Shown: positions 11,808 through 43,783 of the stretch, one piece after another
Position numbering within the stretch: position 1 is the stretch's first letter
How the letters are laid out: each line of letters starts with the position of its first letter
Source of the DNA: Actinomycetota bacterium
Lineage (GTDB): Bacteria; Actinomycetota; Acidimicrobiia; Acidimicrobiales; JAJPHD01
Length of the DNA: 64,000 bases
NCBI GenBank assembly: GCA_021325455.1
Contig: JAJPHD010000012.1
Location: forward strand, 1-64,000
Reading direction: 5' to 3'
Notes under the pieces: model-generated
What the model was told of the DNA's origin: nothing
What the model saw: only the letters and a program-made list of their open reading frames with translations
Database searches by the model: none
Made by a program: the position numbers and the translations under genes

Positions 11808-13253
11808 TCATGGCGCTGCCGGGGCGCGGTCCCGCCGGCCCAGGAAGCGCACGAACTCGACCCCCTCGCGCAGGCGGCGGCCGGTCATCTCGGGGTGGCG
11901 CACCATCTCGGCCGACATCTCGGCCAGCTTGCCGGCCCGGAAGTAGAAGCGGCGGTAGAAGGTGTCCACCGAGTCCAGTATCTCGGTGCGGCCGAGGTGA
12001 GGGTAGGTGAGGGCCGCCAGCTGAGTGCCCTGCTCGCTCACCAGCGCCACCCCCTCCTCGTCCTGAGCCGGGAGCCAGCCGTTCTCCTTGGCCTGACGGT
12101 AGAGCTCGGTGCCGGGGTAGGGAGCAGCCACCGAGACCTGGAGGCTATGCGGGTTCACCTCCCGGGCGAAGCGGATGGTCTCCTGTATGGTCTCCCGGGT
12201 CTCACCGGGCAGGCCCAGGATGAAGGTCCCATGGACGGTGATCCCGAGCTCGCGGCAGTCCTTGGCGAAGCGCCGGGCCCGGTCCACCTTGAGGCCCTTC
12301 TTCACGTTGTTGAGCACCTGCTGGCTGCCCGACTCGTAGCCCACCAGGAGCAGGCGCAGGCCGTTGTCCTTGAGGACCTTCAGGGTCTCGCGGGGAACGT
12401 TGGCCTTGGCGTTGCATGACCAGGTGATGCCCAGGCGGGAAAGGCCCCGGGCGATGGCCTCGGCCCGGGGGCGGTCGTCGGTGAAGGTGTCGTCGTCGAA
12501 GAACAGCTCCTTCACCTGAGGGAAGAGCTGGCGGGCGAGGGCCACCTCCTCGAGCACGTGGCCGACGCTGCGGGTGCGGTAGCGGTGGCCCCCCACCGTC
12601 TGTGGCCACAGGCAGAACGTGCAGCGGGACCGGCAGCCCCGCCCGGTGTAGAGGGACAGATAGGGGTGGAGCAGGTATCCGATGTAGTAGTCCTCGGGCC
12701 GCAGGTCCCTCTTGTAGACGGGGGTGACGAAGGGCAGGCGGTCCATGTCCTCCAGCACGGCCCGGTCCGGGTTGTGCACCACCTGGCCCCGGGGACCCCG
12801 GAAGCTGATCCCGTCCACGGCGTCGAGGGGGCGGCCCTCGGCCACCTCGGCCACGGTGAAGTCGAACTCCTCCCGGGCCACGAAGTCCACGGCGGGGGCG
12901 CCCAGCAGGGAGCGCTCGGGCTCCACGGCCACCTTGGGGCCCACCATGCCGATGAGGAGGGATGGGTTGTGGTCCCTGAGGGCCTGGGCCACCTTCACGT
13001 CGCCGGCGAAGGTGGGGGAGCTGGTGTGGAGGATGGCCAGGTCGTGGCGGTGGGCCAGGGGCACCACGTCGTCGAGGGTGAGGCCCGCCGGGGGGGCGTC
13101 AACCAAGCGGCTGTCGGGGACCATGGCTGCCGGCTGGGCCAGCCAGGTGGGGTACCAGTAGGAGCGGATCTCCCGGCGGGCCTGGTAGCGGGCACCGGCC
13201 CCGCCGTCGAAGCCCTCGAACGAGGGTGGGTTGAGGAACAGGGTGCGCATCAT
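11808..13253 (-). CDS. hpnJ: B12-binding-type radical SAM protein HpnJ (hopanoid cyclitol ether formation)
   Basis: HpnJ is needed in other bacteria to turn a glucosaminyl bacteriohopanetetrol into the cyclitol ether hopanoid. The 481-residue protein matches the family throughout. The N-terminus RTLFLNPPSFEGFDGGAG is followed by a cobalamin-binding-like domain (residues about 30-165), then the radical SAM core with GRGCRSRCTFCLWPQTVGG. Its C-x3-C-x2-C ligands bind the 4Fe-4S cluster. FFDDDTFTD, NAKANVP and HGTFILGLPGET follow. The ATGATG start overlaps the upstream glycosyltransferase stop by four bases. GGTGGGAG sits just before it. No squalene-hopene cyclase or other hpn gene is in the window. 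Confidence 0.92.
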   Translation of the reverse strand: MMRTLFLNPPSFEGFDGGAGARYQARREIRSYWYPTWLAQPAAMVPDSRLVDAPPAGLTLDDVVPLAHRHDLAILHTSSPTFAGDVKVAQALRDHNPSLLIGMVGPKVAVEPERSLLGAPAVDFVAREEFDFTVAEVAEGRPLDAVDGISFRGPRGQVVHNPDRAVLEDMDRLPFVTPVYKRDLRPEDYYIGYLLHPYLSLYTGRGCRSRCTFCLWPQTVGGHRYRTRSVGHVLEEVALARQLFPQVKELFFDDDTFTDDRPRAEAIARGLSRLGITWSCNAKANVPRETLKVLKDNGLRLLLVGYESGSQQVLNNVKKGLKVDRARRFAKDCRELGITVHGTFILGLPGETRETIQETIRFAREVNPHSLQVSVAAPYPGTELYRQAKENGWLPAQDEEGVALVSEQGTQLAALTYPHLGRTEILDSVDTFYRRFYFRAGKLAEMSAEMVRHPEMTGRRLREGVEFVRFLGRRDRAPAAP

Positions 13254-14437
13254 CGGGCTCCCACCTTCTCCAGTCGGGTTCGGGTCGAAGGTACGGCGGC
13301 GGGCTCCGCGTCCGGGGCGGCAGAGGGAGGGCCGAGGGCCGGGGACAGGTCGATGCCGACCCGCTGGAGGGCGGCCACGAAGGCCGGCTTCCATCTGGGC
13401 CCGCTCCCCGTCAGGGGGGCGGGCCGGGTCACCCGCTCCAGCAGGGCGAGGGCGCTGGCGGTGATCCCGGCCGGGGTGGCGACGCAGGTCTCCGCCCCCC
13501 CCAGCTCCAGCTCGTGCAGGAGGTTGTCGCGGCCGTGGCCGGGCATGAGGTCGAGGAGCAGGAGAGGACGGCCCACCACGCGGGCCTCGCTGCAGGTGGT
13601 GGCCCCAGGCAGGGCCACCACCGCGTCAGCGGCGGCCATCAGCTCGGGGACCCGGTCGGTGAAGCCAAAGGCCCTCACCCGGGGCTCGCTCCTTGCCAGG
13701 GACCGGAGCCGGTGCTCGAGGGCTTGCTGGCGGCCCGCCACGGCCAGGACGTGCACGCCGCAGCGGGCCAGGTTGGCCACCGCCTCCACCAGGGGGCCGA
13801 ACCCCCACCCGCTGTCTATGAGAAGGATGCAGGGAGCGCCGGGCGGGATGCCGAGAGACTGGCGAGCGTCGGGCTGGGAGGGGGCCGAGTAGAAGGCGTC
13901 CCGCACCGGGCGGGGGACGAGGGAGACGGCGGCCCGAGGCAGGAAGCGGCGCACGGAGGCCGCCGCCGCCTCCGAGGTGACGAGGAACAGGTCCGTGCCC
14001 TCGGAGACCCAGAGGCGGTGCACGGCCACGTCCGTGCAGAGGACGACGGTCCGCCGCTGGGGTGCCTCGGCCTTGAGCTTGGCCGCCGCCGAGGCCCCGG
14101 TGGCGAAGACGCTTAGGACCAGGTCGGCCGGCCGGCGTCGCAGCTCGGCCCGCAAGGCTGGCACCAGCCTGGCCCCGGCGCCGCGGTCCATCCAGCAGGC
14201 GAACCGGCTCCCGGTGCGCAGGTGGGCGAAGTGCAGGCCGTCGTAGAGAGAGGGGATGGACAGCAGGCGGCCGAACACCTTCTCCCCCGCAGCCCCTCCC
14301 CGGGGGCCGAGCAGGCTCATGCTGTTGAGGCTGCGGGTACGCCAGCCGGCGGCCTCGAGGAGGCCGGAGCAGCTGCGGGCCATCATCTCGTGGCCCAACC
14401 CCAAGGACCCTGCCAGGAGCACTGCGTCCCTGCTCAT
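13250..14437 (-). CDS. GT28-type (MGDG synthase/MurG-like) glycosyltransferase
   Basis: A 395-residue protein with an MGDG-synthase-like N-terminal domain. LLAGSLGLGHEMMARSC is the acceptor-side GLGH loop near residues 9-16. A GT-B C-terminal domain follows with ILLIDSGWGFG (near 213), FGFTDRVPELMAAADAVV (near 265) and the sugar-nucleotide loop PGATTCSEARVVGRPLLL (near 290). Such enzymes glycosylate lipid acceptors, usually diacylglycerol or lipid II. Its ATGA coupling to hpnJ suggests the lipid might be a hopanoid, but that is inference. The ATG is preceded by GGGGAGGTGAC. The ORF extension upstream of it is not needed. Confidence 0.78.
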   Translation of the reverse strand: MSRDAVLLAGSLGLGHEMMARSCSGLLEAAGWRTRSLNSMSLLGPRGGAAGEKVFGRLLSIPSLYDGLHFAHLRTGSRFACWMDRGAGARLVPALRAELRRRPADLVLSVFATGASAAAKLKAEAPQRRTVVLCTDVAVHRLWVSEGTDLFLVTSEAAAASVRRFLPRAAVSLVPRPVRDAFYSAPSQPDARQSLGIPPGAPCILLIDSGWGFGPLVEAVANLARCGVHVLAVAGRQQALEHRLRSLARSEPRVRAFGFTDRVPELMAAADAVVALPGATTCSEARVVGRPLLLLDLMPGHGRDNLLHELELGGAETCVATPAGITASALALLERVTRPAPLTGSGPRWKPAFVAALQRVGIDLSPALGPPSAAPDAEPAAVPSTRTRLEKVGAR

Positions 14438-14541: not shown

Positions 14542-15918
14542 CTAGTCCAGCTCGACCCCCAGGGCGCTGAGGGAGGCCAGGAGCTCCTCGGGCGAGGTGG
14601 CCCCCACCGTGCGCACCACGCCCTGCTCGTCCACCAGGACGTTGGCGGGCACTCCCCGTATGCCCAGCTCGGCGGCATAGGCCCCAGGCTCGTCCAGGAG
14701 CACCGGCCCGTCCACCCCGTACAGGTCGCAGAAGGCCATGGCCTCGGCGCGGGCGTTGACGTGCTCCCAAACGTTGATCATGACTATCTCCAGACCGGAC
14801 CGGCTGGCACGGCGGCGGATGCCCTCGATGAGGGGCGCCTCGCCGTTACAGGGGCCTCACCAGCTAGCGAAGAAGTTGATCAGGTACTTCTTGCCCTGCC
14901 ACTCCTCGCTGGTGCGGAGCCGGCCCGTGATCATGTCGGGCAGCTCGAAGCGTGGGAGGCGCTGGCCCACCAGGGGATGGGGGGAGCTGCCCGACGAGGG
15001 GGCGGGCGGGCGGGTCATGGCGTCGCGCAGCAGGTGGACGGTGCCACTGCCGGCATTGGACACCAGCACGGCGTCGCCATCGGGGTCGGCCACCACGTCT
15101 CCCGGCCCCGAGCCCACCTTCACCCGGGCCCATTCGAGCCGGGTGGCCAGGTCCACCACCGCCAGGGCCCCATGGCCCCGGTCCGCCACGTAGGCCCGGG
15201 TGGCCGATCCGGAGAGGGAGATGCCCACGGGCGCCCCCCCCAGGGGTATCTCGTCGATGAGGGCCGGGTCCTCCAGGTCCAGGACACCGATGGCACCTGC
15301 CAGGGAGTGCACCAGGTACCCCCGGGCGGAGAAGGGGTCGACGGCGATCTTGCAGGGGTACTCGCCCACCTTGAGCTCGGCCAGGGGGCGGTCGGTCCCG
15401 GTGTCGATCACGGTCACGGTGTGGTCCATGAAGTTGGAGCACCACAGCCGGCCCCGGGCCACGTCCACGGCCAGGCTGCCTGCCCCCAGCTTGGCCGGAA
15501 CCGTGCCCAGGACGGTAAGGCGGTCCACGTCGACGACCGTGACGGAGCTGCCCGCCGTGTTCCCGCAGTAGAGCTTGCGCTTCTCGGGGTAGAGGGCCAG
15601 GCCCGCCGGGTACTCGCCGGTGGGGACCTTGGCCACCACCTCCAGGGTGGCGGCATCGATGACGGTCACCGTGTCGGAGCGGGCATCAGCCACGAAGATG
15701 CGGTCCGACTCCTGGTCGTACATGACCGGGATGGGCTCCATCCCCACCGGGACCTGGGCCACCACCTCCCCGCCGGCCAGGTCCATCACGGCCAGGTGGT
15801 TGGAGCGGGAGCAGGCCACATAGCCGCGGCCCCGGCCCTGGTCGAAGGCCAGCCCCTCGGGGCCCATCCCCACCGGGATCTCGGCCAGCGCCGCCACGCC
15901 GGCGCCGGGCCCCGTCAC
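14542..15918 (-). CDS. YVTN beta-propeller fused to TlpA-like thioredoxin domain; predicted selenoprotein with in-frame TGA (Sec354)
   Basis: Reading the TGA at 14857-14859 as selenocysteine gives one 458-residue protein. Residues about 8-305 are a YVTN/YncE-type propeller with repeated blades (VTVIDAATLEVVAKVPTG, VTVIDTGTDRPLAELKVG). A Pro/Ser linker follows, then a TlpA domain from about 322: GQRLPRFELPD, YLINFFASW, then U354-G-P-C357, NGEAPLIEGI, and the cis-Pro loop RGVPANVLVD (Pro424). The TGA replaces exactly the first cysteine of the usual WCGPC motif, and the frame after it encodes the rest of the fold. No signal peptide is visible at the GTG start, and the ribosome site is poor. A conventional caller would split it into 14857-15918 and 14542-14781. 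The alternative is a nonsense mutation. Confidence 0.82.
14827..14844 (-). promoter_or_regulatory. candidate bacterial SECIS hairpin
   Basis: On the mRNA, counting the U of UGA as 1, bases 16-22 (GGCGAGG) pair with 27-33 (CCCUCAU/C side). The pairs are G16-C33, G17-U32, a C-A mismatch, then G19-C30, A20-U29, G21-C28 and G22-C27. The apical loop is CGCC with G as its second base. Distance from UGA to loop is 19 bases, within the 16-37 base range described for bacterial SECIS elements. A competing CCCUC/GAGGG stem one step downstream is also possible. Confidence 0.5.
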
Positions 15919-17037: not shown

Positions 17038-18540
17038 ATGGACCCCGTGGTGGTGGCCGGTGCAGGCCCGGTCGGCCTCACCACGGCCCTCCTCCTGTCC
17101 CTTCACGGCGTGCCCAGCGTGGTGCTCGAGGCCAAGGAGGAGCCGGGCCACGTGGGGTCCAGGGCCATCTGCATGCAGCGGGAGGCCCTCTGGGCCCTGG
17201 ACCGGGTTGGGGTGGCCGAGGCCATGGTGGCCGAGGGAGTGACCTGGACCGTGGGGCGCACCTACTACCGGGACCGGGAGCTGTTCTCGGTCCGCTTCCC
17301 GGAGGAGAGGGGCGGGATGCCGCCCTGGATCAACCTGAGCCAGTGCCGCACCGAGGCCCTCCTCCTCGCCGCGGCCGAGCGCTGCCCCCTGGTCGACCTG
17401 CGGTGGGGCGAACGAGTGACCGGGGTCATCCCCGGCCGGCGCGGCATGCAGGTGGCCACCGAGGGCGGGGGTGGGAGGCGGACATGGCAGGGGTCGTTCC
17501 TGGTCGGGGCGGACGGCCCGCGGTCCACCGTGCGCCAACTCCTGGGCGTGGGCTTCCCCGGGCGCTCCTACGAGGACCAGTTCCTCATCGTGGACGTGGC
17601 CTGCGACCTCGACTTCCCGAGCGAGCGGCGCTTCTACTTCGACCCTCCCTGGAACCCGGGGCGCCAGGTCCTCGTGCACGAGTGCCCGGGCAAGGTGTGG
17701 CGCATCGACTGGCAGGTGCCCGCCGATTACGACCTCGAGACGGAGCGGGCCTCGGGAGCGCTGGACGAGCGCATCAGGCGCATCGTGGGGGAGCGGGACT
17801 ACGAGGTGGTGTGGGCCTCCGCCTACCGGTTCCACGAGCGGGTGGCCTCGTCGTTCCGGGTGGGCCGGGCGTTCCTGGCCGGCGATGCCGCCCACCTGTA
17901 CGCCCCCTTCGGGGCCCGGGGGCTCAACTCGGGGATCTGCGACGCCGCCAACCTGGCCTGGAAGCTGGCCTGGGAGCTGCGAGGGTGGTCGGGACCGGCC
18001 CTCTTGGACACCTACGCAGTCGAGCGGGAGGCGGCAGCGGCCGAGAACCTGGCCGTCACCACCGCCACCATGGACTTCCTGGTCCCCCGGTCGGAGGCCC
18101 AGTGGGCGAGACGGCGCCAGGTGCTGGAGAGGGCGGTGTCAGACCCGGCGGCCCGGGCCGAGGTCGACTCAGGCCGGCTGGCGGAGGCCTTCGTGTACTC
18201 GTCCTCGCCGCTGACCACCCCGGGGGGGCCGGCCGGTCCCCTGGTGGCAGGGGCGGCTGTGCCCGAGCCCCTGCGCCGGCTCATGGGGCCGGGGTTCACG
18301 GTGCTGGCCGGGGCGCCCGTCGAGGCAGGGGACATGGCGATGCCGGTGTCGGTGCAGCTGGTGCGAGAGGCGGTCCCCGCCGGGTGGGTGGCGGTCGTGC
18401 GTCCCGACTTCCACGTGGCCGGCGTGGTCCCGGCCGAGGGGGAGGCCCTGGTAGCGGCTCTCCGGCGCGCCGCCGGCGCTACGGTCGGGGAAGACGAGTC
18501 ACGAGGAGGTGGCCGTGCCGTACTACCGGTGCGTGGGTGA
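17038..18540 (+). CDS. FAD-dependent aromatic monooxygenase (MhpA/PheA type)
   Basis: A 500-residue group A flavoprotein hydroxylase. It has the Rossmann motif VVAGAGPVGLTTALLLSLHG at the N-terminus, the NAD(P)H/FAD DG motif LVGADGPRSTVR near residues 157-168 and the second FAD motif FLAGDAAHLYAPFGARGLNSG near 279-299. A thioredoxin-like C-terminal region follows. Such enzymes hydroxylate phenolic rings. With hmgA and fumarylacetoacetase directly downstream, a reaction feeding homogentisate (for example ring hydroxylation of a hydroxyphenylacetate) is plausible but not shown. It overlaps hmgA by 26 bases. Confidence 0.85.
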   Translation: MDPVVVAGAGPVGLTTALLLSLHGVPSVVLEAKEEPGHVGSRAICMQREALWALDRVGVAEAMVAEGVTWTVGRTYYRDRELFSVRFPEERGGMPPWINLSQCRTEALLLAAAERCPLVDLRWGERVTGVIPGRRGMQVATEGGGGRRTWQGSFLVGADGPRSTVRQLLGVGFPGRSYEDQFLIVDVACDLDFPSERRFYFDPPWNPGRQVLVHECPGKVWRIDWQVPADYDLETERASGALDERIRRIVGERDYEVVWASAYRFHERVASSFRVGRAFLAGDAAHLYAPFGARGLNSGICDAANLAWKLAWELRGWSGPALLDTYAVEREAAAAENLAVTTATMDFLVPRSEAQWARRRQVLERAVSDPAARAEVDSGRLAEAFVYSSSPLTTPGGPAGPLVAGAAVPEPLRRLMGPGFTVLAGAPVEAGDMAMPVSVQLVREAVPAGWVAVVRPDFHVAGVVPAEGEALVAALRRAAGATVGEDESRGGGRAVLPVRG

Positions 18541-19693
18541 GGTACCGCGCAAGCGTCACATGCAGTTCCACCGCCCGGGTGGGGGACTCTTTGCCGAGGA
18601 GCTGATGGGGGAGGAGGGCTTCTCCTCGGACTCGGCCCTCCTCTACCACGTCCACCCGCCCACCGAGATCGTGAAGGCGGAGGCCCCCTCACTGCCTGGC
18701 GGGGACGGGGTGGTGCCCAACCACCCCCTCCTGCCCCGGCACTTCGAGACCCACGGGCTGGAGGTGGGCGGAGACCTGGTCACGGGCAGGCAGCTGCTGC
18801 TGGCCAACGCCGACGTGCGTCTCTCCTACGCCGCCGCGAGCGAGGCCAGCCCCTGCTATCGCAATGCCACGGGTGACGAGTGCGTCTACGTGGAGGCGGG
18901 CCGGGCTCGCTTCGAGTCGGTGTACGGGGTGCTCGAGGTGGGGGAGGGCGACTACCTCGTGGTTCCCCGGTCCACCACGCACCGCTGGGTGCCGGGGGGG
19001 AGCGAGCCCCTGCGGGCCCTCGTCGTCGAGGCCAGGGGGCACATCCACCCGCCTCGGCGCTACCTGTCCCCCACGGGCCAGTTCCTGGAGCACGCCCCCT
19101 ACTGCGAGAGGGACCTGCGGGCGCCGGCCGAACCGCTCGTCGTCGAGGGAGGCGAGACGGACGTGCTGGTCCGCCACCGGGACGGCCTCACGCTCTACAC
19201 CTATGCCCATCACCCCTTCGACGTGGTGGGCTGGGACGGCTGCCTGCACCCCTACGCCTTCTCCATCCGGGACTTCGAGCCCGTGGTGAAGCGGTTCCAC
19301 GCCCCGCCGCCCGTGCACCAGACCTTCGAGGGCCCCCGGTTCGTGATCTGCTCCTTCTGCCCCCGGCCCTTCGACTTCGACCCCGAGGCGGTACCGGTGC
19401 CCTACAACCACTCGAACGTCGACTCCGACGAGGTCCTGTTCTACGTGGGCGGCAGCTTCATGAGCCGCAAGGGAGCGGGGATCGGAATGGGCTCGATCAC
19501 CCTGCACCCGGGCGGGTTCGTCCACGGGCCGCAGCCGGGATCGGTCGAGGCCTCCCTGGGCCAGCCCGGCACCGATGAATGGGCCGTGATGGTGGACACC
19601 TTCGCTCCCCTGTCCCTGGGGGCGGCGGCGGCCCGGTGCGAGGACACCGAGTACGCCTGGACCTGGGCCCGGGGTGCCGCCCGGCGCGGCTGA
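18515..19693 (+). CDS. hmgA: homogentisate 1,2-dioxygenase
   Basis: HmgA opens the homogentisate ring to maleylacetoacetate with Fe(II) and O2. The 392-residue protein starts MPYYRCVGEVPRKRH, as bacterial HmgA proteins do. It has the cupin core with YVEAG and YLVVPRSTTHRW, then the ligand-bearing C-terminal region PYNHSNVDSDEVLFYVGG (His and Glu ligands) and ITLHPGGFVHGPQPG (His). I chose the GTG at 18515 because AGGAGG lies five bases upstream. The GTG two codons earlier overlaps that site. It begins inside the monooxygenase gene, which indicates translational coupling. Confidence 0.94.
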   Translation: MPYYRCVGEVPRKRHMQFHRPGGGLFAEELMGEEGFSSDSALLYHVHPPTEIVKAEAPSLPGGDGVVPNHPLLPRHFETHGLEVGGDLVTGRQLLLANADVRLSYAAASEASPCYRNATGDECVYVEAGRARFESVYGVLEVGEGDYLVVPRSTTHRWVPGGSEPLRALVVEARGHIHPPRRYLSPTGQFLEHAPYCERDLRAPAEPLVVEGGETDVLVRHRDGLTLYTYAHHPFDVVGWDGCLHPYAFSIRDFEPVVKRFHAPPPVHQTFEGPRFVICSFCPRPFDFDPEAVPVPYNHSNVDSDEVLFYVGGSFMSRKGAGIGMGSITLHPGGFVHGPQPGSVEASLGQPGTDEWAVMVDTFAPLSLGAAAARCEDTEYAWTWARGAARRG

Positions 19694-19703
19694 GGAGCCC
19701 CGG

Positions 19704-20894
19704 GTGGAAGGCGGCGCAGAGGGCGGCGGCCCCTTCGGCCTCCACAACCTCCCCTGGGGGGTGTTCTCCCTGCCGGGGGAGGCGCCGCGGGTGGGGGTGC
19801 GGTGGGGGGAGGCCGTGGTGGACGTGGAGCCCCTCCTCGGGGAGATGGCCCCCGGTGCGTTCACCGCTGGCTCCCTCAACCCCTTCATGGCCCTGGGACC
19901 GTCCGCTTGGCACGAAGCCCGGTCCCGGCTCATCGACCTGCTCATTGATGCTCGCCGGGCCGACGAGGTGGCCGCCCATCTGCTGCCCCTCGACCGTGTG
20001 CACCTCCACCTGCCGGTGGAGGTGGCCGACTACGTGGACTTCTACTGCTCCGAGGAGCACGCCTCGAACCTGGGGCGCATCTTCCGTCCCGACGAGGAGC
20101 CTCTCAAGCCCAACTGGCGGCACCTTCCGGTGGGGTACCACGGCCGCTCGGGCACAGTGGCGGTGTCGGGGACGCCGGTGCGCCGGCCGTGCGGGCAGCG
20201 GCGGGGTGCCGACGGCCCGGTCTTCGGCCCGTCTGCCCGTCTCGACCTGGAGGTGGAGGTGGGCTTCGTGGTGGGGGTGGGGTCGGAGATGGGGCGCCCC
20301 GTCCCGGTGAGCGCCTTCGCCGACCACGTGTTCGGCGTCGTGCTGGTGAACGACTGGAGTGCCCGGGACATCCAGGCCTGGGAGTACGTGCCCCTGGGCC
20401 CCTTCCTCGGCAAGTCCTTCCTCACCTCCATCTCGCCCTGGGTCGTCCCCTTAGAGGCGCTGGGCACGGCCCGGGTCCCCGGACCCCCCCAGGATCCCGA
20501 GCCCCTTGCCTACCTCCGGCGCGGGGAGCCCTGGGGGCTGGACCTCCACCTCGAGGTGGAGCTTTGCGGCCAGGTGGTGTCGCGGCCCCCGTTTGGCGGG
20601 CTGTACTGGACGCCGGACCAGATGCTGGCGCACATGACGGTGAACGGGGCCAGCCTGCGGACCGGCGACCTCTTCGCCTCGGGTACCGTCTCCGGCCCGG
20701 CTGCCGACCAGCGGGGCTCGCTCATAGAGCTCTCGTGGAACGGGGCCCAGCCGGTCAGGCTGGCCGACGGGTCCCGGCGCAGCTTCCTCGAGGACGGGGA
20801 CACGGTCACCATCTCGGGTAGCGCCCCGGGGCCGGACGGGGCCGTGATAGGGCTGGGATCGGTTACCGGGAGGGTGGAAGGACACTCCAGTTGA
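19704..20894 (+). CDS. fahA: fumarylacetoacetase
   Basis: The enzyme hydrolyses fumarylacetoacetate to fumarate and acetoacetate, the last homogentisate step. The 396-residue length is near that of long-form FahA. Visible landmarks are the N-terminal SH3-like part FGLHNLPWGVFS, the DFYCSEEHASNLGRIFRP region (metal Asp and the catalytic His area), WRHLPVGYHGRSGTV, VLVNDWSARDIQAWEYVPLGP and the C-terminal LFASGTVSGP. The GTG at 19704 is preceded by TGAGGAG, seven bases away. An earlier in-frame GTG at 19674 would overlap hmgA. Confidence 0.92.
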   Translation: MEGGAEGGGPFGLHNLPWGVFSLPGEAPRVGVRWGEAVVDVEPLLGEMAPGAFTAGSLNPFMALGPSAWHEARSRLIDLLIDARRADEVAAHLLPLDRVHLHLPVEVADYVDFYCSEEHASNLGRIFRPDEEPLKPNWRHLPVGYHGRSGTVAVSGTPVRRPCGQRRGADGPVFGPSARLDLEVEVGFVVGVGSEMGRPVPVSAFADHVFGVVLVNDWSARDIQAWEYVPLGPFLGKSFLTSISPWVVPLEALGTARVPGPPQDPEPLAYLRRGEPWGLDLHLEVELCGQVVSRPPFGGLYWTPDQMLAHMTVNGASLRTGDLFASGTVSGPAADQRGSLIELSWNGAQPVRLADGSRRSFLEDGDTVTISGSAPGPDGAVIGLGSVTGRVEGHSS

Positions 20895-20955
20895 CGCCCA
20901 TAACTCCCGCCGCCAAGATGGGCCGCACTGTCGCGCCGGAGGCGAAGGGGCACAC

Positions 20956-22401
20956 ATGGCGGACGTGGTCGGCGAGCGGGTTCACCCCCGGGAGCCGAGG
21001 CAGATCGTGGCCCGGCTGGAGAGGATCGACGTCTGGTCCCTCTCCTGGGTCTTCATAGGCATCATCGGCCTCGGCTTCCTCTTCACCTTCTACGACATCT
21101 TCGACATAAACGTCTCCTTCGTGCAGACCTGCGTGCAGATAAAGGCGGGGTGCACGCCCGCCAACGCCTTCAACACCTTGAAGGTGCCGGTGGTGCTCAA
21201 CCTGGCCGGCTACGTGGTGGGGACGCTGATCCTCTCCCCCATAGCCGATCGGGTGGGCCGGCGGAACATGCTGCTCGTCACCATGGTCATCACCGGCATC
21301 GGCTCCCTGTACAACGCCCTCGCCCCGGGGTACGCCAACTTCGTCGTGGCCCGCATCATCACCGGGGTGGGGGTGGGCGCCGACCTGGCCCTGGTGAACA
21401 CCTACATCAACGAGGTCGCCCCCTGCCGCCAGCGGGGGCGGTACACGGCGGTGATCTTCACCATGTCGGCCCTGGGCGCCTTCATTGGTATCTGGCTGGG
21501 GCTGATCCTCACCACGCCTGCCACTCCCTGGCCCACCGGCCTCCCCTTTGCCATCGCGGGCAAGGGGTTCCCGCAGGGCTGGCGGTGGATGTACGGGATC
21601 GGAGCCCTGCTGGCCCTGGTGGCTGTGGTGCTCCGGGTCGAGCTGCCCGAGTCGCCCCGCTGGCTGATCGGCCAGGGCCGGCTCGAGGAGGCCGACAGGG
21701 TGGTGAGGGCCATGGAGGAGAGGGCCAGCCGCCGGCACCCGCTGGCCGAGCCCGTGGACGACCCCTCCCTGGCGGTCACCCCCTCCAGCCGGGCTCCCTA
21801 CGGGGAGGTGCTGCGCAATCCCTTCTACCTGAGAAGGGCGGTCCTCCTGCTCGTGGTGTGGTTCGTTGCCTACATCACCGTCTACGGCTACTCGGCCGGC
21901 TTCACCTCCGTGCTGACCGGCCTGCACTACCCGGTCCCGGAGGCTGGGCTGATAGCGGCCATGGGGACCCTGGGCTTCATCGCTCAAGGGATAGTGACGG
22001 CAGCGGTGGTGGAGCACCTCGACCGGCGCTACTGGCTGCCCATCGGCGCCGTGCTCACCGTCGTGGGGGCCGTGCTCGTGGCCGAGGGCGGCCACCAGCT
22101 CGTGGTCTCCTTCATCGGGGCCTGCCTGATCTTCTTCGGGTTCAATGTCTGGGTCTCACCGACCTACGCCCTGTCGGCGGAGAGCTTCCCCACCCGGGCC
22201 CGCAGCACCGGCTTCGCCCTGGTGGACGGGGTGGGCCACATCGGGGGCGGCATCGGCGTGCTGGCCATCGCCTCGTTCGTCATCGGCCTGCCCGTGATCT
22301 GGGCCCTGCTCTTCATGGGCAGCTTCCTGTTCGTGTCCTCGGTGCTGGTCCAGTTCGCCGCCAGGACGAGGGGGAGGGTGCTGGATGAGGTGTCGCCCTA
22401 G
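20956..22401 (+). CDS. MFS permease, sugar/aromatic-acid porter type
   Basis: A 481-residue 12-helix permease. After helix 2 it has SPIADRVGRRNMLLVT (near residues 94-109), later PESPRWLIGQGRLEEA (near 233) and PTYALSAESFPTRARSTG (near 395), signatures of the sugar-porter and aromatic-acid:H+ symporter branches. Following fumarylacetoacetase by 61 bases, it probably imports the aromatic acid degraded by this cluster, which is inference from position. GGAGGCGAAGGGG precedes the ATG. Its TAG stop shares bases with the stop of the convergent CoA-transferase gene (CTAG). Confidence 0.85.
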   Translation: MADVVGERVHPREPRQIVARLERIDVWSLSWVFIGIIGLGFLFTFYDIFDINVSFVQTCVQIKAGCTPANAFNTLKVPVVLNLAGYVVGTLILSPIADRVGRRNMLLVTMVITGIGSLYNALAPGYANFVVARIITGVGVGADLALVNTYINEVAPCRQRGRYTAVIFTMSALGAFIGIWLGLILTTPATPWPTGLPFAIAGKGFPQGWRWMYGIGALLALVAVVLRVELPESPRWLIGQGRLEEADRVVRAMEERASRRHPLAEPVDDPSLAVTPSSRAPYGEVLRNPFYLRRAVLLLVVWFVAYITVYGYSAGFTSVLTGLHYPVPEAGLIAAMGTLGFIAQGIVTAAVVEHLDRRYWLPIGAVLTVVGAVLVAEGGHQLVVSFIGACLIFFGFNVWVSPTYALSAESFPTRARSTGFALVDGVGHIGGGIGVLAIASFVIGLPVIWALLFMGSFLFVSSVLVQFAARTRGRVLDEVSP

Positions 22402-43138: not shown

Positions 43139-43783
43139 CTATTTCGCCCGGGACAGGGCGTGCAGCCAGTGGTCGAGAGCGGCCGGTGTCAGCTGGCCCG
43201 AGACGGCCCGGGCCACCCGGCCGTCAGCCCCGATGAAGACCGTGGTGGGCAGGCCCAGGAGACCGTACCTGGTTGCCGCTCGCCCCTGGGGGTCCTGGCC
43301 CACCGGGTAGCGGACCCCCGAGGTACGGACCAGCTGGCGGGCGTGGGCGGCGTTGTCGTTCACGTCCACGCCCACGAAGGCGATGCGGCCGTGCTCGTGG
43401 CGCGCCGCCCGGGCCAGGAGGGGAAGCTCCTGCTTGCAAGGTCCGCACCAGGAGGCGAAGAAGTTCAGCACGACGGGCCTGTGGCCGGCGCGGGGCAGGC
43501 TGACCCGGGGGTGGCCGGGGAGCAGCGGTGGCAGGCTGAGGCGAGGTGGGACGGCTCCGGGACCGGCTCCGCTGGGGGCCGGTGCCCGGGGGGGAGCCGC
43601 TCCCACGGGGGTGGTGGCGGCGGTGCGTGCCGGGCGGCGGGGGCTCAGTCCCAGCACGTAGAAGATGCCCGCGGCGACGAGGCCGAGGGGGATGAGGACG
43701 GCGAGCACCAGGGCCAGGCGGGTCCAGGCCGGCGGGCGCGAAGGGCGGGAGGGAGTGAAGGCTGGCTCCTCCGGTGCCGTCAT
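43139..43783 (-). CDS. TlpA/ResA-like membrane-anchored thioredoxin
   Basis: A 214-residue extracytoplasmic thiol-disulfide protein. A signal-anchor helix (LALVLAVLIPLGLVAAGIF, about residues 24-42) is followed by a Pro/Ala linker and a TlpA fold. The intact active site is NFFASWCGPCKQELPLL (near 107-123) and the cis-Pro loop LGLPTTVFIGADG (near 172). This is the same ASW-x-GPC context in which the gene at 14542-15918 has TGA. It is likely to keep cytochrome or oxidase cysteines reduced. Confidence 0.85.
   Translation of the reverse strand: MTAPEEPAFTPSRPSRPPAWTRLALVLAVLIPLGLVAAGIFYVLGLSPRRPARTAATTPVGAAPPRAPAPSGAGPGAVPPRLSLPPLLPGHPRVSLPRAGHRPVVLNFFASWCGPCKQELPLLARAARHEHGRIAFVGVDVNDNAAHARQLVRTSGVRYPVGQDPQGRAATRYGLLGLPTTVFIGADGRVARAVSGQLTPAALDHWLHALSRAK

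What the first reader, a model, noticed from the sequence alone, without database searches (positions are those of the whole stretch)
14542..15918. In-frame TGA at the catalytic cysteine of a thioredoxin domain: a probable new selenoprotein
On the minus strand the frame reads INFFASW, then TGA (14857-14859), then GPCNGEAPLIEG, and runs on without another stop for 105 codons to a TAG at 14542. The TlpA active site is normally W-C-G-P-C; here the first Cys codon is TGA and the second Cys is intact. The sequence after the TGA encodes the rest of the fold, including the cis-Pro loop GVPANVLVD, so the downstream part is under coding constraint. A random nonsense mutation hitting exactly this codon out of about 458 is unlikely. 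Ordinary gene calling would report two unrelated fragments. Selenocysteine at thioredoxin-like active sites is established in other bacteria; this protein's architecture is not one I know as a selenoprotein.
Basis: partly seen in the sequence, partly recalled or inferred. Interest (0 to 1): 0.93.

Follow-up and report, generated by a model that had tools for sequence, protein, structure and literature searches.

The report
New propeller-thioredoxin selenoprotein family
An uncultured bacterium carries a gene with a TGA stop codon exactly where a thioredoxin active site should have its first cysteine; the same TGA stands in all eleven full-length copies found (this one and ten relatives), each in a genome with the selenocysteine tRNA, so the protein is predicted to contain selenocysteine and likely works as a disulfide-handling enzyme mounted on a beta-propeller.

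Summary
Observation confirmed, interpretation supported. TGA 14857-14859 (minus strand) sits at the first Cys of a WCGPC site; the frame runs 104 codons further to TAG 14542. Eleven full-length copies (own plus ten genomes, 44-52% identical to it) all have TGA in this column; no full-length Cys form was found. The three best database hits end exactly at FFASW. All 11 genomes have tRNA-Sec(UCA) and SelD; selA was found in all seven checked. In G627 the gene directly follows selA-selB-selD-selC; in 5 of 11 genomes (3 genera) a sel gene lies within 20 kb. Synonymous codons just after the TGA agree more than in any other of 449 stretches of the gene, and a hairpin is shared, though its loop breaks the published G rule and it is weak in the window's own copy. 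The protein is a seven-bladed YVTN propeller with a C-terminal UGPC thioredoxin domain. UxxC in TlpA/redoxin folds is a known kind; this propeller fusion is not named in the 119-family 2026 catalogue, though one listed 'Redoxin family' entry could not be compared. So: a new variant of a known kind. Selenium insertion, substrate and direction of the reaction are untested.

The parts
14542..15918 (-). Whole predicted selenoprotein gene, GTG start 15918 to TAG 14542-14544, 458 residues
   Evidence: the start is the only ATG/GTG/TTG in this frame before the upstream stop (sequence)
15022..15897 (-). Seven-bladed YVTN beta-propeller (residues 8-299, 28 strands)
   Evidence: (TIGR02276 152.1 bits, cut-off 27.85), model, solved folds
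14545..14970 (-). C-terminal redoxin/TlpA-like thioredoxin domain (residues 317-458)
14857..14859 (-). In-frame TGA, predicted selenocysteine 354 of the UGPC active site
   Evidence: TGA in 11 of 11 copies
14848..14850 (-). Cys357, second active-site residue
14647..14649 (-). Pro424 of the GVP loop, expected cis-Pro (recalled thioredoxin feature)
14809..14844 (-). SECIS-candidate hairpin region, +16 to +51 from the U of the UGA
   Evidence: weak in this copy

Best explanation
The gene has an in-frame TGA at the first cysteine position of a thioredoxin active site, and this TGA is predicted to be read as selenocysteine by the cell's SelB and tRNA-Sec, giving one 458-residue protein that likely reduces disulfides. 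Shown: the TGA, its presence in all 11 copies found, the Sec machinery in their genomes, protein-level constraint after the TGA, and extra constraint on the synonymous codons right behind it. Inferred: SelB binds a hairpin about 16 to 51 bases from the U of the UGA. Inferred: Sec354 is the exposed attacking residue and Cys357 the resolving one, cycling through a selenenyl-sulfide. Inferred: the propeller docks the partner next to the active site. By eye the members show no signal peptide, so a cytosolic site is likely but untested. The substrate is not known.
For: TGA at the same column in 11 of 11 full-length copies from 11 genomes (found). Own genome: selA, selB, selD, tRNA-Sec UCA, and SelD itself has an in-frame TGA. 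tRNA-Sec 11 of 11 and SelD 11 of 11 (anticodon tca). Gene directly behind selA-selB-selD-selC in G627 and behind selD-selC in G031. The three best of 186 database hits end at FFASW, and a separate fragment begins just behind the site. dN/dS after the TGA 0.145 and 0.076 in the two close pairs. Synonymous agreement highest of 449 windows just after the TGA. Shared hairpin, 90.2% of 143 cells paired. Confident model, pLDDT 91.7, pTM 0.90. Cys paralogue in the window.
Against: No protein or selenium data. selA is present over cut-off in 114 of 198 genomes of the order, so machinery alone is weak support. The shared hairpin loop lacks the G of the published bSECIS model; a strict scan found no hairpin at -7.5 kcal/mol or better in 11 of 11 copies, but it also fails the own selD and passes 51 of 308 control stretches. 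The own copy (8.3%), L050 (8.4%), L151 (14%) and L152 (46.6%) do not fold better than 95% of synonymous controls. Two-sided pair changes are no more than shuffles give (85 of 500). Two distant stretches of the gene also show high synonymous agreement (z 7.9 and 6.7 against 8.9). In the own genome the gene is not on a contig with sel genes. SelB was checked in only 2 of 11 genomes.
Confidence: 0.88

Rival explanations
1. The TGA is a real stop: the cell makes a 353-residue propeller and the thioredoxin part is a relic or is made separately.
For: Gene callers in public databases stop there (P0002-P0004) and call a separate C-terminal fragment (P0122). Own hairpin is weak.
Against: All 11 copies keep the frame behind the TGA without a second stop, with dN/dS 0.145 and 0.076 in the close pairs. 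The stop would cut the thioredoxin fold at its active site, and UGPC is invariant in the 11 copies.
Confidence: 0.05
2. A sequencing error or a recent nonsense mutation in this one genome.
For: One base separates TGA from a Cys codon; no reads could be checked.
Against: Ten other genomes, 44-52% identical over the protein, have the same TGA.
Confidence: 0.01
3. The organism reads TGA as an amino acid by another code or by general read-through rather than by the Sec system.
For: The residue replaced is Cys, so reading TGA as Cys would also fill the site.
Against: TGA ends ordinary genes here: the homogentisate dioxygenase 18560-19693 ends in TGA at the length usual for its family, and selA, selB and selD of G627 end in TGA. 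tRNA-Sec UCA is present in 11 of 11 genomes.
Confidence: 0.03

Closest known systems
UxxC selenoproteins of TlpA/redoxin type: 'Redoxin family protein' PF08534 (HEU0032618.1), 'Thiol-disulfide isomerase-like' cd02966, 'Prx-like thiol:disulfide oxidoreductase' PF00578 (Table 1 of PMC13188914)
   Same: Sec at the first position of a UxxC site in the same fold; PF08534 is also the best Pfam hit here.
   Different: No propeller is named in the table. The representative sequences could not be fetched, so identity with the Redoxin entry is open.
NF041054, ResA-like WAxxUGC selenoprotein family
   Same: ResA-like thioredoxin domain with selenocysteine.
   Different: 52.8 bits against a cut-off of 300; motif WUGPC, not WAxxUGC.
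NHLRC2 (PMC6107167, passages)
   Same: Thioredoxin-like domain next to a beta-propeller, active site facing a cleft in the solved structure.
   Different: NHLRC2 has the thioredoxin domain first, a six-bladed NHL propeller and CCINC; here propeller first, seven blades, UGPC.
YVTN/YncE propellers (1l0q, 3vgz)
   Different: The matches cover residues up to about 302 of the model and not the thioredoxin part.
ResA/TlpA thiol-disulfide oxidoreductases (4nmu, 1st9)
   Same: C-terminal domain by profile: 4nmu 70.7 bits over positions 307-444.
   Different: Cys instead of Sec and no propeller (family knowledge).

Membership tests
Bacterial selenoprotein | In-frame UGA at a position that is Cys in homologous domains | tested here: met
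Bacterial selenoprotein | UGA conserved in relatives | tested here: met
   11 of 11 full-length copies
Bacterial selenoprotein | Genome encodes SelA, SelB, SelD and tRNA-Sec | tested here: met
   Own genome: all four. Relatives: tRNA-Sec and SelD 10 of 10; SelA 6 of 6 checked; SelB checked in G627 only
Bacterial selenoprotein | bSECIS hairpin 16-37 nt behind the UGA with G in the first two loop positions, MFE -7.5 or lower (PMC13188914) | tested here: inconclusive
   Hairpin at a fitting distance, shared, loop G absent; strict scan 0 of 11 but also fails own selD and passes 51 of 308 controls. The review says some genes do not fit the model
Bacterial selenoprotein | Selenium present in the protein | not testable with these tools
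   needs labelling or mass spectrometry
TlpA/ResA-like thioredoxin fold | Redoxin/TlpA domain over the curated cut-off | tested here: met
   PF08534 65.8 bits, cut-off 26.6; PF00578 54.2, cut-off 26
NF041054 WAxxUGC selenoprotein | Score over the curated cut-off of 300 bits | tested here: not met
   52.8 bits
NHLRC2 | Thioredoxin-like domain N-terminal to the propeller | tested here: not met
   propeller residues 8-299, thioredoxin 317-458
NHLRC2 | CCINC motif | tested here: not met
   WUGPC in 11 of 11
Redoxin family selenoprotein UxxC (HEU0032618.1) | Same sequence family as the listed representative | not testable with these tools
   accession could not be fetched

The most novel reading that the evidence does not exclude
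A selenocysteine-only enzyme family that serves selenium metabolism itself: sitting right behind selA-selB-selD-selC in some genomes, the propeller would hold SelD or a selenium carrier while the protein's own selenocysteine reduces bound selenium to selenide for selenophosphate synthesis, so that a selenoprotein feeds the pathway that makes it.
Probability: 0.15. Interest if true: 0.85.

Novelty: new variant of a known kind. Interest (0 to 1): 0.65.

Why it matters
Common selenoprotein searches pair a TGA with Cys homologues (PMC13188914, passage). At full length this family showed no Cys form in the searches here, and public gene calls cut it in two, so it is easily overlooked. It adds a selenoprotein architecture from an uncultured lineage in which selA is common (114 of 198 genomes), and its place behind the sel genes in some genomes makes a link to selenium supply testable.

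Tried and rejected
Machinery co-occurrence as the main proof: set aside, since selA is over cut-off in 114 of 198 genomes of the order. Strict bSECIS scan: uninformative. Rfam on the window at gathering thresholds: no match. Fold of the own 63 bases from -3: ordinary (z -0.51). Function from neighbours: 30 chosen predicted proteins were scanned (10 of the window, 20 from five relatives' loci plus L050); apart from sel genes I saw no neighbour shared beyond one genus (aconitase in G031 and G627, same genus). The pdb_via list is filled by the propeller, so the absence there of a propeller-thioredoxin entry says nothing. P0005 was left out of the alignments because its end reads out of frame. Propeller-only matches G156, G655 and G552 were not counted as members. 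The synonymous test used 9 of 11 copies; L148 and L151 were left out as near copies. A second tRNA-Sec-like match over the gathering score in G499 (48.7 bits) was not pursued.

Literature: eight searches; I saw the listings, 10 to 20 rows each, and none named a propeller-thioredoxin selenoprotein. PMC13188914: section 7 parts 1 and 2 of 3, which hold Table 1, and passages. PMC2398784: section 9 and passages. PMC9312934, PMC9402790, PMC6107167: passages. PMC12013277: term search, no hits.

Full report
Observation. On the minus strand 15918-14542 reads as one frame of 458 residues with a single TGA at 14857-14859, between INFFASW and GPCNGEAP, ending at TAG 14542-14544. 104 sense codons follow the TGA. 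Pfam sees a Redoxin/AhpC-TSA domain spanning the TGA and a YncE-like propeller before it.

Machinery in the own genome. The window lies in a 2.95 Mb draft of 28 contigs, 96% complete. It has selA on contig C14 (413.6 bits, cut-off 267.9), selB beside it (256.7 bits, cut-off 242.25), tRNA-Sec on C14 (67.2 bits, gathering 47; anticodon tca) and selD on C17 (353.3 bits, cut-off 125). SelD has an in-frame TGA at its own active site, so UGA-Sec decoding in this genome does not rest on the new gene alone.

Homologues. In 397 genomes drawn from the order, 11 matched at E 1e-40 or better: nine full length (own included), each with exactly one stop, a TGA; two (G156, G655) propeller only. In 396 genomes drawn from the phylum, three matched: own, G499 (full length, one TGA) and G552 (propeller only). 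That gives 11 copies in 11 genomes, 11 of 11 with TGA in one column. The ten relatives are 44-52% identical to the own protein. In the protein database search 186 proteins passed among the 7999 candidates scored, 120 listed; the three best end exactly at FFASW, and no listed hit is a full-length Cys form. A search with the thioredoxin part alone gave five hits among 152 candidates, the best a fragment starting just behind the site. The window also holds a Cys paralogue, NFFASWCGPC.

Machinery in the relatives. tRNA-Sec: 10 of 10, each read by ARAGORN with anticodon tca (which also held one non-member, G552). SelD: 10 of 10; in-frame TGA only in G178 and in one of two copies in G731. SelA: five of five searched and G627 by Pfam; G695, G727, G731 and G743 were not checked. 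SelB outside the own genome was checked only in G627. SelA is over cut-off in 114 of 198 genomes of the order, so this agreement is needed but not strong by itself.

Linkage. In G627 selA, selB and selD (Pfam) and selC lie on one strand in that order; by my gene prediction selA-selB and selB-selD overlap by 4 bases and the new gene starts about 80 bases behind selC. G031, same genus, has selA, selD, selC and the gene in the same order and strand. In G197 and G727 (one genus) sel genes lie about 7 to 11 kb away, in G499 selD about 18 kb away. So 5 of 11 genomes, 3 genera, have a sel gene within 20 kb. In the other six the gene and the sel genes found are on different contigs, the own genome included.

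Constraint after the TGA. The two close pairs give dN/dS 0.145 and 0.076 behind the TGA; four distant pairs give 0.39 to 0.61. Synonymous codon agreement among nine of the 11 copies is highest of 449 windows at about codon +10 (z 8.9); two stretches far upstream reach 7.9 and 6.7. Pairs and windows are not independent.

Hairpin. The stretch +1 to +54 aligns without gaps. A hairpin at +16 to +51, loop near +31 to +36, is shared: 90.2% of 143 cells pair, shuffled mean 86.7% (0 of 500 as high), slid versions 35.0-59.4%; the covariation score is reached by 17 of 500 shuffles, the number of pairs changed on both sides by 85 of 500. Against synonymous recodings 7 of 11 copies fold better than 95% of controls; own (8.3%), L050 (8.4%), L151 (14%) and L152 (46.6%) do not. 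The published model asks for a G in the first two loop positions (PMC13188914, passage) and the shared loop lacks it. My strict scan could not decide: 0 of 11 copies pass, own selD fails too, and 51 of 308 control stretches pass.

Structure. A model from 14 sequences has mean pLDDT 91.7 and pTM 0.90, with 28 propeller strands (seven blades) and a C-terminal thioredoxin fold. The closest solved folds are YVTN/YncE propellers and, by profile, ResA-type proteins for the C-terminal domain. Ten of 11 copies have a G-[PA]-x-C motif before the propeller; the own one does not. Propeller residues Cys36 and Cys189 are invariant in the 14 aligned sequences; their role is unknown.

Mechanism (inferred). 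SelB with Sec-tRNA reads UGA 354. Sec354 would be the exposed attacking residue and Cys357 the resolving one, as in thioredoxin folds with UxxC or CxxC (family knowledge). The propeller would hold the partner; in NHLRC2 a cleft between such domains is proposed as a ligand site (PMC6107167, abstract passage). That the reaction runs as a reduction is a guess from the GPC motif.

Comparison and novelty. Table 1 of the 2026 catalogue (119 families) lists Redoxin UxxC, Thiol-disulfide isomerase-like UxxC and others, so Sec in this fold is a known kind. Propeller, YVTN and NHL do not occur in that paper's text. The listed Redoxin representative could not be fetched, so identity with it is open. The eight literature searches showed no propeller-thioredoxin selenoprotein in their listings.

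Organism. The neighbouring homogentisate dioxygenase is closest, among named hits, to an Acidimicrobiales MAG (78%), so an uncultured actinobacterium of that group is likely; this is inference.

Noticed in passing
window 17038-22401 (+): FAD monooxygenase, homogentisate 1,2-dioxygenase, fumarylacetoacetase-type hydrolase and an MFS transporter in a row: a likely aromatic-degradation cluster beside the gene.
   Followed up: no
window 43139-43783 (-): TlpA-type protein with NFFASWCGPC and an N-terminal hydrophobic stretch: a Cys counterpart of the new domain in the same window.
   Followed up: partly
L169 and L177 (genome G731): Two selD genes in one genome, one with an in-frame TGA and one without.
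   Followed up: no
L021, L147, L148, L149, L151, L153, L154, behind the thioredoxin domain: Seven of 11 copies have a C-terminal extension with a WHW motif; own, L050, L131 and L152 lack it.
   Followed up: no
window 11808-14386 (-): Downstream on the same strand: a glycosyltransferase-28/MGDG-synthase-like protein and a radical SAM protein.
   Followed up: no
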